In this document: positions 1 to 20,394 of the stretch, piece after piece
Numbering within the stretch: position 1 is the first letter of the stretch
Layout: the number at the start of each line of letters is the position of its first letter
Virus record (IMG/VR): IMGVR_UViG_3300031902_000378
Span: 1 to 20,631 of that record
DNA length: 20,631 nucleotides
Reading direction: 5' to 3' (one strand)
From: a virus
Program-made: the position numbers and the translations under genes
The notes under the pieces: generated by a model
Told to the model about the DNA's origin: nothing
The model's database searches: none
What the model saw: only the letters and a program-made list of their open reading frames with translations

Positions 1-690
1 TCGCAGCGCCATCGTCGTCCACCGGGCACCCGTGACGGTGAGCACTTCCCGGGCCCGCAGATCGGCCGCCAGGCCCGACAGCGTCAAGCCGTCGACAACC
101 CCCTGTGTGGCGCTGCGAACCTCGGCCGCCTCGATCTCGCGGACCGTGACGCCGTCCGGCTCGAACCCGAACGGGCGCCGCCCGCCGCCGAACCTCCCGG
201 ACTGGGCTTGCCTGATCCGCGCATCCGACACCCGCCGGGCGGTGTCCCGACTGCTCTTGTTGGCGACCGCGACCATGACCCGGGCCATGGTCACGTCCGC
301 GTCGGTCGCCAGCCGCAGACTCCCGGTGATCGACTCCACCGGGACCCGCTGGCCTTCCACGACGTCGATCAGGTCCTCAAGGTCACGCGGGTCACGGCAC
401 ACCCGGTCGAGATCGACGGCGAGCAGGCCGTCAGCCCGCCCGGCCGCCAGGTCTTCGAGCGCAGCGCGGAACGCTGGCCGGTAGGTGCGTAGCTCGGTCC
501 GGCCGTTCGGCAGCGTGATCTTGCGCCGCTTGAACGCGCTCGTGTTGTCCTCGGTGACCACCCGACCCACACCCCAGCCAAGCTGGGAAGCCTTGCGGCG
601 CAACGCTTTTTCTTGATCGTCTGTGCTGTGCGTGTCGTCGTCGTCAGAGTCGGAGATCCTTGCCAGCAAGGTTGCACGGATCGGAGTCAT
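1..690 (-). CDS. int: Large serine integrase, N-terminal part (cut by window edge)
   Basis: The minus strand is open for 230 codons from the ATG at 690 to the window edge, so the C-terminus is missing. The protein opens with the resolvase fold: LARIS places the catalytic serine at residue 13, and the later LDRVCRDPRDLEDLIDV carries the conserved Arg-Asp motif of the active site (near residues 91-107). From about residue 160, GRFGGGRRPFGFEPDG and GLAADLRAREVLTVTGARW match the start of the Recombinase domain (Pfam 07508 type) found only in large serine recombinases. Family members are usually 450-600 residues, so roughly half is visible. It would catalyse attP x attB recombination through a Ser-DNA covalent intermediate. 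A candidate attP begins 15 bp upstream of its start, the usual place in phages. Divergent from the early genes. Confidence 0.93.
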   Translation of the reverse strand, partial: MTPIRATLLARISDSDDDDTHSTDDQEKALRRKASQLGWGVGRVVTEDNTSAFKRRKITLPNGRTELRTYRPAFRAALEDLAAGRADGLLAVDLDRVCRDPRDLEDLIDVVEGQRVPVESITGSLRLATDADVTMARVMVAVANKSSRDTARRVSDARIRQAQSGRFGGGRRPFGFEPDGVTVREIEAAEVRSATQGVVDGLTLSGLAADLRAREVLTVTGARWTTMALR

Positions 691-984
691 GCCCCGATCT
701 TAGCGTGTCACAACCGAGGTTTCGGCTTGCCCGCACATGGGTTGTGACACACCCCCGACGCGGGCCGATGCATGGTCGTCAGCATCCTGAACAATTTTCA
801 TGATCCGCCCTCGCGCGAGTCCACGCTGCCCCCCGGTTGACATGGGCATGTGCACAACTTGAGGACGCTCCGGAGAGTGTGATCCTAAAATCTCGCGCAC
901 CCCCACGTGCGATCGTGGGCAACGGACGTCGTACAGTGGACGACATCGGTTGCCACAAGATCTTCGTGAGGGGCTCACACGATC
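691..984. promoter_or_regulatory. Divergent control region between int and the early genes
   Basis: No convincing gene lies here. Besides the attP candidate it holds several dyads: CTGAAC-AAT-TTTCAT at 787-801, a 10/12 match to the operator palindrome seen at 1556 and 2202; CTCGCGCGAG at 810-819; and CCCACG-N6-CGTGGG at 902-919. A consensus -35 hexamer TTGACA sits at 837-842, but no good -10 follows at normal spacing. TACAGT at 932-937 could be a -10 for rightward transcription into the gene at 985. Leftward, TAAGAT (702 to 697 on the minus strand) could be the int -10. The promoter assignments are weak; the dyads are directly visible. Confidence 0.45.
705..750. other. attP: Candidate phage attachment site attP
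   Basis: GTGTCACAACC (705-715) and GGTTGTGACAC (740-750) form a perfect 11-bp inverted repeat separated by 24 bp. The centre is GGC-TT-GCC (724-731), giving a non-palindromic TT dinucleotide exactly at the dyad axis. This is the architecture expected of a serine-integrase attP: outer arms 12-23 bp from the centre where zinc-ribbon domains bind, a weaker inner symmetry, and an asymmetric two-base crossover. It lies 15 bp upstream of the integrase start. The full symmetry suggests a site that has not recombined. The alternative is an operator for integrase autoregulation. Confidence 0.68.
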
Positions 985-6540: not shown

Positions 6541-8103
6541 CTACGCGAGGACGAGCGCGGATGCGGACCGGAAGAAACCCCAGGCAGGGTTATTGCCCGC
6601 AGCGCGACGGCACTCCCATTCGAAGAATCCGAGCAGCTCCGGGTGTGCGTCGAGGTTCGAGGCGAACGCCGAGAGGGCGACGTCCTGCGGCGAGGAATTC
6701 GGGTAGGACTCGCCCACCACGCGGCACATGAATCCCTGCACGAGCTTGCTGAGCGGGATTCCGGCGCCGGACACGCGGGAACACACGCTCTCCAGCACGG
6801 ACAGCAGTTGACTCGTGTTACCCGCCTCCGGGAAGTCGTAATTCATGGTGGCGAAATAGTCGAGGATGCCCGCGTCCGAGTGCGCCTTGCCGGACGCCAG
6901 CCACAGCGGCTCCAGCGCTCCCCACAGTCCGGCGGTTAGGCCGATACTGAAACTCGCGCCGTACTTCGCCTTGAGCTTCTGCGAGCACGAGAGCATTGAC
7001 GCGACGTTCCACGCGCTGGGATTCTCGAGATCGTAGTCAACGCCGTTGATCCCGTGCGCGTCGACCATGGCCACCACGGAATTGAACATCTGTGTCGCGT
7101 GCGTCTCGTTGAGCAGGCGAATGGTGTCATTGTTCGACGAGCCGCCGATACCGATAGCGACGACGCCACCAGCCGCGATGAATGCGTCAGTGCATGCCCG
7201 GTCGAGCCCGCCGCCGCCGTACGCGACGTTACCGGTACCCGATCCCGAGCTGTCGGCCATGCCGATCACGACGTGTGTTGCGGTGTCCCGGATGTCGGTA
7301 GGCCAGTCCGCCATGGCGGGGCCGTCCCACGAGTTGAGCCACATCGCCGCGACCTTGCCGCCGCCACCACCCACGGGGGGCGGGTCGATCGGGTCGCCGA
7401 GACTGAGAACGACCGCCGCGCCGACTGTGGCATAGCTGGACAGGTATGACGCCGCGTCGCCGTGGCCGGACAGGACATAGCCGGTCGCGGGGATCGTCGT
7501 CCCGACTTCGCTGCCCGAGGAGAGCCGGTCGTTGACGGCGGACACCTTGCCGTCGCCGCCGATGGTGACCTCCACCCCGTAGGAATTCGTCGTGGTGATC
7601 GTCTGCGGCGCCATGAGACGCACAAGCTCATTGACCCCACGCCCGCCCGGGTAAGAGCCGGTCGGGTTGGTCCCGGCGAGCGGGTAACTGTTCGTCCCGA
7701 TCGTCACGGTGTTGACGTCGCCGGTCGGCGCCGCCGTCACGGTGAAGCTCGCCCCGGTCGCGTCGGCCGGTGCGTACGCGGCCGGATCGGTGGGAGTGAA
7801 GTGCGCGCCGAGGGTGTGGGTTCCCGCCGTAGGGCTCACGTAGGCCGTGGCTGCCCCGGAGACGAGCGCCACGGGCTCAGAAACGCCGCCGCCGGTGAGT
7901 GCCACGGTCCCGGCCGCCGACGTCGGAGACGCCGTCACAGTGGCGCCGAGGGCGATGCCTTCGACCTGGGGTGAGACGGGGGTGACGTCGCCGAGGGAGA
8001 GGGTGACCTCTACCGCCGTAGGCGGGACGACGTCGCGTGAGGTGACGTCGATGTCATAGACGGTTCCGGACTCGTCGGAGCCCGTGCCAGTGATCTTTAC
8101 CAT
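6541..8103 (-). CDS. Multidomain Ig-like / phosphodiester-glycosidase-like / GH18 glycosidase protein
   Basis: A 520-residue protein with AAGGAA seven bases before the ATG at 8103. Residues about 45-125 form a bacterial Ig-like domain (GTVALTGGG, then AGTHTLGAHFTPTD). Residues about 128-234 resemble the N-terminal part of the bacterial phosphodiester glycosidase (NAGPA-like) family: SYGVEVTIGGDGKVSAVNDR and IPATGYVLSGHGDAASYL. After a PPPVGGGGG linker, residues 250-520 are a GH18-like barrel with VVAIGIGG and the signature NGVDYDLE. This matches DGxDxDxE, with the proposed proton donor E360 and with D356 and D358 present, but Asn353 replaces the first Asp. No signal peptide is seen. It lies between the endolysin and the holin-like gene, so it may be a virion-associated or accessory lysin attacking cell-wall or capsular sugar. 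The substrate is unknown. Confidence 0.84.
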   Translation of the reverse strand: MVKITGTGSDESGTVYDIDVTSRDVVPPTAVEVTLSLGDVTPVSPQVEGIALGATVTASPTSAAGTVALTGGGVSEPVALVSGAATAYVSPTAGTHTLGAHFTPTDPAAYAPADATGASFTVTAAPTGDVNTVTIGTNSYPLAGTNPTGSYPGGRGVNELVRLMAPQTITTTNSYGVEVTIGGDGKVSAVNDRLSSGSEVGTTIPATGYVLSGHGDAASYLSSYATVGAAVVLSLGDPIDPPPVGGGGGKVAAMWLNSWDGPAMADWPTDIRDTATHVVIGMADSSGSGTGNVAYGGGGLDRACTDAFIAAGGVVAIGIGGSSNNDTIRLLNETHATQMFNSVVAMVDAHGINGVDYDLENPSAWNVASMLSCSQKLKAKYGASFSIGLTAGLWGALEPLWLASGKAHSDAGILDYFATMNYDFPEAGNTSQLLSVLESVCSRVSGAGIPLSKLVQGFMCRVVGESYPNSSPQDVALSAFASNLDAHPELLGFFEWECRRAAGNNPAWGFFRSASALVLA

Positions 8104-8139: not shown

Positions 8140-8964
8140 TTACTGGTCCAATCGGGCCGCGAGAGCGTCGAGCAGGGCTTTCGCGTTTCCGGAGTCGGCG
8201 GGGAGCTTCGCCACGATCGCGTCTGCCAGCGCGTTGACGTCGATGTCTCCGGCGGTGACCGCCGCGAGCAGCGCCACGAGCCGCACATTGTCGGCATCTG
8301 CGCCCGCATAGAGCCGGGTGAGCAGGGTCAACGGATTGACCTTTTCGCCCTTGATCGTCAGCGGGTAATAGAGGATGCCCTGTTGAATCTTCTGAATGTC
8401 GTCGTCGTCGAGCGTCGCCATGACGCTCCCTCCTGCGAGTCGTGCGCGGATGCCAGGCCAGATCACGGATTCGAGCTGTTCGGCGCGGGCGGGCCCCGGG
8501 CACGAATGCGCCTGCGGATTCCATTCCTCGAACATGTTGTGATAGCCGAGTCCGCGCCCGTTCCACGCCGTGGCTTTCGTGGCGGGATTACCGGTCTGCT
8601 GGCACCACCATGTGCCCAGCCGAATCGAGCTTTCGATCTGCGCCGCCGAGAATCCCTCTTGCCAGCGCCCGCCGTCCGAGCATTCGATGCTCGTGGCGTA
8701 GGCATTGCCTGCCACCTGCGCGTCTGCCTGGTGGTCGAGCGTCTGCCATTGGTAGAGCACGCCGTCCAACCCGTCGGGGTCATAGCGCCCGCCGAGGCCG
8801 AAATGACTTTCCGTGCCGGAGTAGCCGGCCGCCTTAAACATATTTTCGGTACTGCCGAGATACCCGACCATGGTGTGCCAGATCAGCAACCGCGGAATGC
8901 CGATATTCGGCTCGGTCTGCGTTCCCAGCGGCCGGAATCGCGCACCGGGGTAGAGTAGTTGCAT
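8140..8964 (-). CDS. lysA: Endolysin, N-acetylmuramoyl-L-alanine amidase
   Basis: A 274-residue protein with GAGGGGA before the ATG at 8964. The N-terminal 165 residues fit the zinc-dependent Amidase_2/PGRP fold: LLIWHTMVG with ligand H30, SHFGLGG with H54, TSIECSD with E94, GLGYHNMF with second ligand H142, and AHSCPG with third ligand C155. It would cut the MurNAc to L-alanine bond of peptidoglycan. A second helical module starts near residue 180 (DDDDIQKIQQGILYY, then DVNALADAIVAKLP), of the sort seen in actinophage tail and lysin proteins; it may bind wall or form multimers. There is no signal peptide, so release would need a holin. It precedes the GH18 and holin-like genes in transcription order. 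Confidence 0.9.
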   Translation of the reverse strand: MQLLYPGARFRPLGTQTEPNIGIPRLLIWHTMVGYLGSTENMFKAAGYSGTESHFGLGGRYDPDGLDGVLYQWQTLDHQADAQVAGNAYATSIECSDGGRWQEGFSAAQIESSIRLGTWWCQQTGNPATKATAWNGRGLGYHNMFEEWNPQAHSCPGPARAEQLESVIWPGIRARLAGGSVMATLDDDDIQKIQQGILYYPLTIKGEKVNPLTLLTRLYAGADADNVRLVALLAAVTAGDIDVNALADAIVAKLPADSGNAKALLDALAARLDQ

Positions 8965-18027: not shown

Positions 18028-20394
18028 TCATCCCTCGCTCGTCGCGTAGGCCGCGAGATCGACGTCAGCCGAACCGCTCGCCGCCGCGCGCGACCCGGGC
18101 AGCGATTGCGGGCCGGGCGATATCCCGGCGGTGCCGTTGTGCGCCGGGCGCGAGCCGGGCCGGGCCCCGGGGCCGTGCGCCGCCCCGGGCACGCCGCGCG
18201 TGGTCGGCTCGGAGTCCGCCAGCGCGGTCCCGTAGAGAACCGGGCCGATCAGGGCCGCCGTCGCCGAGCTGCCCGCGTTCGCATGCGCCAGGGCGACCGC
18301 GAACCGGGCGACCACGCCCACGGCGGTAGCTGCCCCGTGAAGCGCCCCGATTGCGGCGCCCGTCCGGTTGACCACGGCGCTAGCGCTGGCCCCTGCAGTG
18401 ACCACAGCGCCCGCGCTGGGACCCCCTGCGGCTGCCACGCCTGCCGCGACGGCGCCCGCCGTGACGGTGGCGCTGCCCTGCGCGTATCGAGCGACCTGGG
18501 CGAGGGCGACGGCGCCCGCGACCGCCGCGCCGCTCGCGCTGGCCAGCGCCGCCACCTGGCCGACGGCTACCGAGCCCGCCGCTACCTGGCCGCTCGCCGT
18601 GGCGGTGGGTGCGCCCCCGCCGATCGCCGCGACCGCGACCGCTCCGGCCACAGCGACGCCGGTCCCGGCCCCGGCCGCGCCGACCTGGGCGAGCGCGACG
18701 CCTGCGGCCACTGCAGCCCCGCCAGCGGCCCCGGATCGAGCGACGGTGCCAGTAGCCGCACCCGTGGCCACGGTGGGCGCGGCAGCGCTGGCAGCGGTTC
18801 CCGTGACCGCTTGCGCGGTTCCCGTTGTGGCGCTCGTGCCGAGGGCAGCGCCGAACCGGGCGACCCGGGCCGTCGTCGTCCCGGCCGCGTGGACAGCGCC
18901 GGGAGCGGCGCCGTTCAGGTTGATCACGGCGACGTCGATCCGAGCCGTTGCGGTGGCCTGCGCGGTGACGGTTCCCGCCCCGGTCGCGGGGACGTCGACA
19001 ACCGGCGCGCTGTAGGTCTGCCGGAACCGCAGCGCGATACCGGGGCCGCGCGCATAGGTGGTCGTGCCCGCCGCCGTTGCCGTCATCGTCGCGGGGCCCG
19101 TGGACGGGCCGCCCGTGCATACCGCGTACGCGACGAAACCGCCGATGCGGTTACCGATGGTGGATCGGGCATCGACGATTTCCGTCACAGGCCCGAACGT
19201 GGCGCCGGGAGCGGTCACGGATTCCAGCGAGTAGGACGTCACGGCCGACGTGCCCGCCGTGAATGCACCGAGGGCTAGATCCCCCTCAATGAATCCCGGG
19301 TCGGACGACAGTGTCACGGATACCGCCGCGCCCGCCGTGACGTCCGAACCGGTCACCCCCGGGTCGGTGCCCTCCCATTGCGCATCGGAGCAGGTAAGGC
19401 ACACGATCGCCGCCCACGCCACAGAGTTCACGCCGAGGGTTACCGCGAGAGTTCCGGATTCCGTGCCGTCTACGGTGTCTTTCGTGAACGCATAAATGTT
19501 CGTGTTGCCCTGCGTGGTGGACAGCGTCGACCCGAACCCGCCCGCGCCTTTCAGCATCCCGTGTGCCGTCCAGCCGCTCGGGGTGGTGACCGTGCCGCCG
19601 TTCGCCGTAGTCGGTTTCTGTCCGACGATCAGGACCAGCCGGTCACCCGCGCTGATACCCGTCGGATAGCCGGGGGCGATCGACGTTGCGCTGGCGACGG
19701 TGCCGACCGCTTTCGTTCCCGTGGAGACGTAGGTAACGACGCCGTGCGTCGGCGGGGTGATCGGGCCGCCGACGCCGTCCGTGATGACGATGGAATCGAA
19801 AACGACAACGCCGTCAGCCGCGCCCGTCGGTCCGGACACGAGCGTGACGAGCCCGCTTGTAAATGGGGCGCTCGAATCGGTGGCGCTGGAGTCCCAGATT
19901 TCTGGTTCGGCATTGGCGGCCGGCCACACGCGCCACTGATGAAGATCACCCACAATCTGGAACCGAAAGCCGTAATCCACGCCCGGGGTGAGCGTCATGG
20001 ATTTCGGGGTGCCGACGTTCCCGGTTCCCGTGCCGCCCCACTGCACAATCTTCGCTTCGACAAGCGTGCCCGAGGACGTGAATTCGAGCATGTAACCGTC
20101 ACTGCCGTCAGTGCCCCCGGCCGCCTGCTCGCGCAGCCACACGTAGGCGTGCGTCTCACCATTGCCGCTGTCGAGATTGACGATGCCGCTGACTTCGACG
20201 TCAGTGACGTCGGCGTGATTCCACGACAGCCGGTAACTCCCGGCGTACTCGGTCGCCGTGCCGTTGTCGAGCCGGAGTCGGTTGTTCTGGAGGGTGGCCG
20301 TCGCCCCGGCCGTCACGTATCGCGCGAGCCAATCCGCGCCGACCGCAGACGTGCCGTTAGAGCCGGTGAAATCCGCCGACAGATATATGGTCAT
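18028..20394 (-). CDS. Large virion protein with LamG-like domain and Ala/Gly/Val repeat domain
   Basis: A 788-residue protein with GGGAGG nine bases before the ATG at 20394. Residues 1-207 resemble a concanavalin/LamG-like beta sandwich: MTIYLSADFTGSNGT, DGYMLEFTSSGTLVEAKIV, and FDSIVITDG at its end. Residues about 217-460 form a second beta-rich domain (SAGDRLVLIVGQKP, TTPSGWTAHG, WAAIVCLTCSDAQW). Residues about 466-720 are almost only Ala, Gly, Val, Thr and Ser in imperfect repeats of about 20 residues. The final 65 residues are Pro/Gly/Ser-rich. It sits upstream of the connector gene, where actinophages often carry head or collar decoration proteins. It may be a fibre or surface-binding protein; the function is not known. 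Confidence 0.8.
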   Translation of the reverse strand: MTIYLSADFTGSNGTSAVGADWLARYVTAGATATLQNNRLRLDNGTATEYAGSYRLSWNHADVTDVEVSGIVNLDSGNGETHAYVWLREQAAGGTDGSDGYMLEFTSSGTLVEAKIVQWGGTGTGNVGTPKSMTLTPGVDYGFRFQIVGDLHQWRVWPAANAEPEIWDSSATDSSAPFTSGLVTLVSGPTGAADGVVVFDSIVITDGVGGPITPPTHGVVTYVSTGTKAVGTVASATSIAPGYPTGISAGDRLVLIVGQKPTTANGGTVTTPSGWTAHGMLKGAGGFGSTLSTTQGNTNIYAFTKDTVDGTESGTLAVTLGVNSVAWAAIVCLTCSDAQWEGTDPGVTGSDVTAGAAVSVTLSSDPGFIEGDLALGAFTAGTSAVTSYSLESVTAPGATFGPVTEIVDARSTIGNRIGGFVAYAVCTGGPSTGPATMTATAAGTTTYARGPGIALRFRQTYSAPVVDVPATGAGTVTAQATATARIDVAVINLNGAAPGAVHAAGTTTARVARFGAALGTSATTGTAQAVTGTAASAAAPTVATGAATGTVARSGAAGGAAVAAGVALAQVGAAGAGTGVAVAGAVAVAAIGGGAPTATASGQVAAGSVAVGQVAALASASGAAVAGAVALAQVARYAQGSATVTAGAVAAGVAAAGGPSAGAVVTAGASASAVVNRTGAAIGALHGAATAVGVVARFAVALAHANAGSSATAALIGPVLYGTALADSEPTTRGVPGAAHGPGARPGSRPAHNGTAGISPGPQSLPGSRAAASGSADVDLAAYATSEG
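18235..18999 (-). repeat. Region coding about 12 imperfect 20-residue Ala/Gly/Val repeats
   Basis: The repeat domain covers residues about 466-720 of the 788-residue protein. Clear units include GAAPGAVHAAGTTTARVARF, GAAGGAAVAAGVALAQVGAA, GAGTGVAVAGAVAVAAIGGG and GAAIGALHGAATAVGVVARF, mostly 20-21 residues (some 23). At DNA level the units are only partly alike, so this is an old protein repeat rather than a recent tandem duplication. The pattern suggests a stacked beta structure or a flexible fibre. Extreme GC also makes long false frames on the plus strand here. Confidence 0.7.

What the first reader, a model, noticed from the sequence alone, without database searches (positions are those of the whole stretch)
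705..750. Intact attP-like site beside the serine integrase
A perfect 11-bp inverted repeat with a 24-bp spacer has a GGC-TT-GCC centre and lies 15 bp from the integrase start. Arms at 12-23 bp from the dyad fit the zinc-ribbon contacts known for attP sites of large serine integrases. The predicted crossover dinucleotide is TT (727-728). This gives a concrete recombination site for an integrase that may be new.
Basis: partly seen in the sequence, partly recalled or inferred. Interest (0 to 1): 0.7.

Follow-up and report, generated by a model that had tools for sequence, protein, structure and literature searches.

The report
Phage attP site beside serine integrase
A short palindrome next to a phage integrase gene is almost certainly the site where this phage joins its host's chromosome, and relatives of the integrase repeatedly insert inside one codon, the ATP-binding lysine codon of many unrelated host genes.

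Summary
In detail: GTGTCACAACC (705-715) and GGTTGTGACAC (740-750) form a perfect 11-bp inverted repeat with a 24-bp spacer centred on GGC-TT-GCC (TT at 727-728), 14 bp from the start of a large serine integrase cut off by the window end. It is the only such repeat in the window. The attP reading holds. I reconstructed attP/attB from both ends of nine elements with related integrases (46-61% identical). A profile built from those nine attPs, window excluded, scores 727-728 at 38.5 bits; the next best site in the window scores -0.5. The related integrases share an unexpected target. In eight of nine pairs, and in about 40 int-side junctions, the crossover falls in the lysine codon of a Walker A motif (GGC-AAG, Gly-Lys) in unrelated P-loop NTPases: TadA/T2SSE, ABC, NB-ARC, HelD-like, ComM, AAA, EF-Tu. 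The window core GGCAAG fits this, so its attB is probably a Walker A Lys codon in an actinobacterial host. A sister clade uses comEA with a GA core. The window's host and real attB remain unknown, and nothing was tested biochemically.

The parts
1..690 (-). large serine integrase, N-terminal 230 aa (catalytic domain, ARIS serine at residue 13), gene cut off by the window end
   Evidence: translation; Pfam Resolvase 5e-17; PHROG integrase 4e-34; Arg11 and Ser13 invariant in nine relatives
703..752 (.). attP, about 50 bp, both halves intact
   Evidence: sequence; scores 38.5 bits with a half-site profile from nine attPs of relatives, next best site in the window -0.5
705..715 (+). left arm GTGTCACAACC, integrase-proximal outer half-site (RD-ZD linker and zinc-domain contact region by analogy with LI integrase)
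   Evidence: contact map from PMC3783163; arm consensus TGACAC in relatives
740..750 (+). right arm GGTTGTGACAC, exact reverse complement of the left arm
724..731 (+). core GGC-TT-GCC; on the integrase strand GGC-AA-GCC, which matches GGC-AAG (Gly-Lys of Walker A)
   Evidence: same core in reconstructed attPs of L014, L016, L039, L013
727..728 (+). predicted crossover dinucleotide TT (AA on the integrase strand)
   Evidence: intersection of attP/attB identity over nine pairs is exactly AA/TT

Best explanation
The palindrome at 703-752 is the attP of the phage's large serine integrase. A dimer binds it, one subunit per half. The recombinase domain sits near the core and the zinc domain on the outer arms, by analogy with LI integrase. 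It is synapsed with an attB, cut with a 2-nt stagger at TT/AA (727-728), rotated and rejoined. Shown here: site, symmetry, position, and match to the attPs of related elements whose recombination junctions map to the same central AA/TT. Inferred: binding, cleavage and the window's own attB. The most likely attB (about 0.7) is the Walker A lysine codon (GGC-AA|G) of a P-loop NTPase gene in an actinobacterium, because eight of nine reconstructed relatives and about 40 int-side junctions lie exactly there. Having both halves uninterrupted, with phage genes on both sides, means the sequenced molecule was not integrated at this site (excised, circular or packaged form).
For: Geometry and uniqueness. 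Nine attL/attR pairs whose host flanks rejoin to open frames, with the crossover narrowed to AA/TT (Pfam of six rejoined proteins). Profile from those attPs: 727 scores 38.5, runner-up -0.5; arms alone also rank 727 first of 20,579 positions. Intact palindromes at the same distance (about 30-45 bp) upstream of int in viral contigs L002, L004, L007, L106; L106 core is GGTC-TT-GCC. Walker A junctions in further loci from an independent genome search, with NTPase families by Pfam. Arms-only placement lands on a Walker A Lys codon in 10 of 23 untrained junctions (score >=9) against 9 of 2000 random stretches.
Against: No attL/attR or attB for the window phage itself. The nearest integrases are only about 60% identical and the window lacks the C-terminal DNA-binding half. 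The catalytic-domain tree places the window next to L013, which uses the same AA core in a DUF222/13E12 gene, not a P-loop gene, with weak support. Other close relatives use other cores or targets (L025 CT, L182 GT, L205 TG, L184 beta-lactamase family). L013's arms are one bp closer to the centre.
Confidence: 0.92

Rival explanations
1. It is attP with the TT crossover, but attB is not a Walker A codon: the window integrase targets another gene that happens to hold GGCAAG or CCAAGAC, as L013 does in a DUF222/13E12 gene.
For: L013, among the closest relatives (60-61% identical), rejoins to a DUF222 gene across ACC-AAG-ACC; L184 inserts in a beta-lactamase-family gene. The catalytic-domain tree puts the window next to L013.
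Against: L013's arms are shifted by one bp and fit the profile poorly (leave-one-out -23 and -28), whereas the window's arms and core match the Walker A group.
Confidence: 0.25
2. It is an operator: a palindromic binding site of a dimeric repressor that controls the integrase promoter, not a recombination site.
For: Perfect symmetric arms a few bp upstream of a start codon are also typical of operators. Nothing here measures what binds the site.
Against: In relatives the same kind of site at the same distance is split by integration with host sequence replacing one half. An operator would not be halved at its centre, with the other half at the far end of the element.
Confidence: 0.03
3. Chance palindrome with no function.
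For: About 0.55 perfect 11-bp inverted repeats with spacer <=40 are expected in 20.6 kb.
Against: About 0.002 is expected at this distance from int, and the sequence matches a profile trained on other elements by 38.5 bits.
Confidence: 0.01

Closest known systems
Large serine integrases of actinophages (phiC31, phiBT1, TG1, Bxb1 type) and their attP sites
   Same: N-terminal resolvase domain; relatives carry the Recombinase domain and one a weak zinc-ribbon match; attP of about 50 bp beside int, dinucleotide crossover, attB inside a host coding sequence
   Different: No integrase in the PDB matches relative L014 by sequence. Best annotated phage records are 30-39% identical. The target in relatives is one codon shared by unrelated genes instead of one gene.
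Listeria LI/A118 integrase attP (PMC3783163)
   Same: pseudo-palindromic attP; outer 9-bp zinc-domain motif at positions 16-24 from the centre, where the window arms lie (12-22)
   Different: different sequence, different target (comK, from general knowledge), different core dinucleotide
LSR clusters that target the magnesium chelatase (ComM) gene, and multi-targeting LSRs (PMC10083194)
   Same: Some relatives found here (L186, L190) also insert in ComM, at its Walker A Lys codon. That paper also describes LSR clusters with several targets and a TT core.
   Different: The main text names neither Walker A nor P-loop (0 hits). Here one integrase group uses the same codon in many NTPase families.
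comEA-targeting serine integrases (sister clade here: L009, L028, L029, L032, L044 and others)
   Same: same integrase family, same attP position, in-gene target
   Different: GA core, arms TAACCTATC, single target gene; one clade in the tree

Membership tests
Large serine integrase (LSR) | N-terminal resolvase/invertase catalytic domain with serine nucleophile | tested here: met
   Pfam Resolvase 5e-17; Arg11 and Ser13 invariant
Large serine integrase (LSR) | long C-terminal half with Recombinase and zinc-ribbon domains | tested here: inconclusive
   Window truncated at residue 230. Four relatives carry Recombinase PF07508, and one a zinc-ribbon match just under its cut-off.
attP of a serine integrase | pseudo-palindromic site of about 50 bp adjacent to int | tested here: met
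   same arrangement in L002, L004, L007, L106
attP of a serine integrase | attL/attR hybrids switch sequence at the central dinucleotide | tested here: inconclusive
   Met for nine elements with related integrases; no integrated copy of the window phage was found.
attP of a serine integrase | integrase binds and recombines the site | not testable with these tools
   needs an in vitro or in vivo assay
Walker A-targeting integrase group | attP arms and core of the group (GGC-AA/TT-GCC; TGACAC at 17-22 nt) | tested here: met
   38.5 bits with the group profile, halves 16.7 and 21.8
Walker A-targeting integrase group | insertion at the Lys codon of a P-loop | not testable with these tools
   host and attB of the window phage unknown
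comEA-targeting sister clade | GA core and TAACCTATC arms; membership of the clade | tested here: not met
   window core is AA/TT and arms are TTGTGACAC; in the tree the window lies outside that clade

The most novel reading that the evidence does not exclude
The window integrase belongs to a widespread actinobacterial group of serine integrases whose attB is the Walker A lysine codon itself. A short DNA core (GGC-AA-G) that evolution keeps fixed because the protein motif is fixed lets one attP core be reused on ABC transporters, secretion ATPases, STAND regulators, helicases, AAA proteins, ComM and even EF-Tu, so related phages can switch genes and hosts without changing the crossover dinucleotide.
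Probability: 0.7. Interest if true: 0.7.

Novelty: new variant of a known kind. Interest (0 to 1): 0.58.

Why it matters
It turns a bare palindrome into a testable integration system (integrase gene, attP, crossover dinucleotide, predicted class of attB) and suggests a general rule. A site-specific integrase can follow a conserved protein motif instead of a conserved gene, by recognising the codons that the motif forces. That would explain broad host and target ranges, predict insertion sites in new genomes, and supply a set of integrases with related cores for engineering actinobacteria. It also means that lysogeny by these phages inactivates an NTPase gene each time.

Tried and rejected
(1) Operator-only reading: rejected because relatives are cut at the centre of the site. 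(2) Far ends of L018, L037, L046, L050, L070, L021, L031, L019: not found within the DNA fetched (contig ends or element >50 kb), so only their int-side junctions count. (3) Whole-window megablast against phage records: no match, so no close phage supplies an integrated copy. (4) Arms-only placement of the centre is noisy because some relatives have arms shifted by one bp (L013, L183, L178, L018); the full half-site profile is clearer. (5) Literature: searches that paired serine integrase/recombinase or prophage attB with Walker A, P-loop, magnesium chelatase or comEA gave no paper describing this rule; subscription journals and supplements were not searched. (6) The window's specific attB gene cannot be predicted, since attP and attB share only the AA/TT core plus 1 to 6 bp.

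Full report
Observation. The sequence at 705-750 is exactly as described: GTGTCACAACC, 24 bp, GGTTGTGACAC, with GGC-TT-GCC at the dyad and TT at 727-728. The integrase starts at 690 on the minus strand and is truncated by the window end after 230 residues. It has the resolvase catalytic domain and matches the PHROG integrase family. The window holds no other perfect 11-bp inverted repeat with a spacer up to 40; Markov sequences of the same size hold 0.55 on average. Right beside the integrase start the chance expectation is roughly 0.002.

Relatives. The window belongs to a 20.6-kb virus record with no close match among phage records. Its integrase is roughly 40-62% identical to many integrases in actinobacterial genomes and viral contigs and only 30-39% identical to those of annotated Streptomyces and Microbacterium phages. 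Relatives with complete genes carry the Recombinase domain, and one a weak zinc-ribbon match.

Intact attPs. Viral contigs L002, L004, L007 and L106 have a palindrome centred about 30-45 bp upstream of the integrase start, the same place as in the window. L106 reads GTGCATTACAACCCGGTAGTGGTC-TT-GCCCACTCGGCGGTTGTAATGCAC. The position is conserved while the sequence of the arms differs, as expected of attP sites with changing specificity.

Prophage junctions. In chromosomal relatives only the integrase-proximal half is present and host sequence begins at the centre. For nine elements both ends were found (L013, L014, L015, L016, L020, L023, L027, L033, L039). Joining the host flanks gives one open frame each time. 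Pfam domains span the junction in T2SSE, ABC, BTAD/NB-ARC and DUF222 proteins; the HelD-like protein of L020 matches UvrD-type helicase and AAA models. Each pair shares a short stretch between attP and attB. Combined, the only positions shared by all nine are the two central ones, AA on the Walker A strand (L020, L023, L027 and L033 set one edge; L039 sets the other). Caveat: the far ends were located by requiring the same dinucleotide and arm complementarity or a Walker-type reading frame. The open frames across the junction and the Pfam domains are the independent check.

Profile test. A half-site profile built from those nine attPs, with the window excluded, scores the window's 727-728 at 38.5 bits (halves 16.7 and 21.8). 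The next best of 1219 AA/TT-centred sites scores -0.5. With the core left out, the arms alone still rank 727 first of 20,579 positions.

Target rule. In eight of nine pairs the AA lies in the lysine codon of a Walker A motif...GTGTG[K]TT in TadA-like ATPases...GPNGAG[K]TT in ABC transporters...GIGGVG[K]T in STAND regulators...GAPGTG[K]T in a HelD-like helicase. One-sided junctions extend this to EF-Tu, ComM (Mg chelatase) and AAA proteins, about 40 distinct junctions in all. Arms-only placement, which ignores core and host sequence, lands on a Walker A Lys codon in 10 of 23 untrained junctions at score >=9, against 9 of 2000 random stretches. The exception among the pairs, L013, uses AA in a DUF222 gene (TT[K]TW), so what is recognised is DNA and not protein function. 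A separate clade inserts in comEA with a GA core; it forms one clade, and the window lies outside it. The arms and core of the window are those of the Walker A group.

Mechanism. Shown: the site, its symmetry, its match to attPs of related elements, and the crossover dinucleotide in those elements. Inferred from serine integrase biochemistry (PMC3783163): dimer binding, zinc-domain contact with the outer arms, 2-nt staggered cleavage, subunit rotation. Inferred from the group: attB is probably a Walker A Lys codon. On the integrase strand the core is GGC-AA-GCC, so the prediction is that int and the interrupted NTPase gene are read in the same direction, as in L014, L033 and L039 (AA on the int strand) and unlike L015, L016, L020, L023 and L027 (TT).

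Known or new. The attP itself is a new member of a known kind. Durrant et al. (PMC10083194) report magnesium chelatase as a frequent LSR target and describe multi-targeting LSRs, but the main text mentions neither Walker A nor P-loop, and the paper searches found no statement of the rule. Targeting one conserved codon across unrelated NTPase families therefore looks like a new variant, with the reservation that subscription papers and supplements were not searched.

Noticed in passing
L070 (Actinoplanes sp. NBRC 103695), junction just upstream of int; L240, L241: An element of this group interrupts an EF-Tu gene at its P-loop Lys codon. The same genome holds another tuf copy (91% identical over 119 aa) and a more distant one (76%), which probably makes the insertion tolerable. 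An integrase fragment with a stop lies about 1 kb from the 91% copy (G021:C74:5119-5406).
   Followed up: partly
L009, L028, L029, L032, L035, L040, L041, L044, L045, L049, L052, L060: A sister clade of serine integrases is inserted near the 3' end of comEA (GGCATCGGC-GA), in Streptomycetaceae, Streptosporangiaceae and others, with attP arms TAACCTATC.
   Followed up: partly
L013 (Micromonosporaceae MAG): Element inserted in a DUF222/13E12-type gene, the same gene family that carries the phiRv1 attachment site in Mycobacterium (the phiRv1 comparison is from memory, not tested).
   Followed up: partly
L050 and L195; L196, L197 and L198: Near-identical P' half-sites sit next to different host NTPase genes (for example HelD-like and NB-ARC type), suggesting that closely related integrases switch between genes that share the Walker A core.
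   Followed up: no
window 6541-8103 and 8140-8964, minus strand: Two neighbouring genes in the tail region match a glycosyl hydrolase 18 domain (weak, below cut-off) and an Amidase_2 domain, possibly cell-wall-degrading tail or lysis proteins.
   Followed up: no
window 18028-20394, minus strand: A 788-aa protein next to the head-tail adaptor gene has no PHROG match and a long Ala/Val/Gly/Thr-rich C-terminal half.
   Followed up: no
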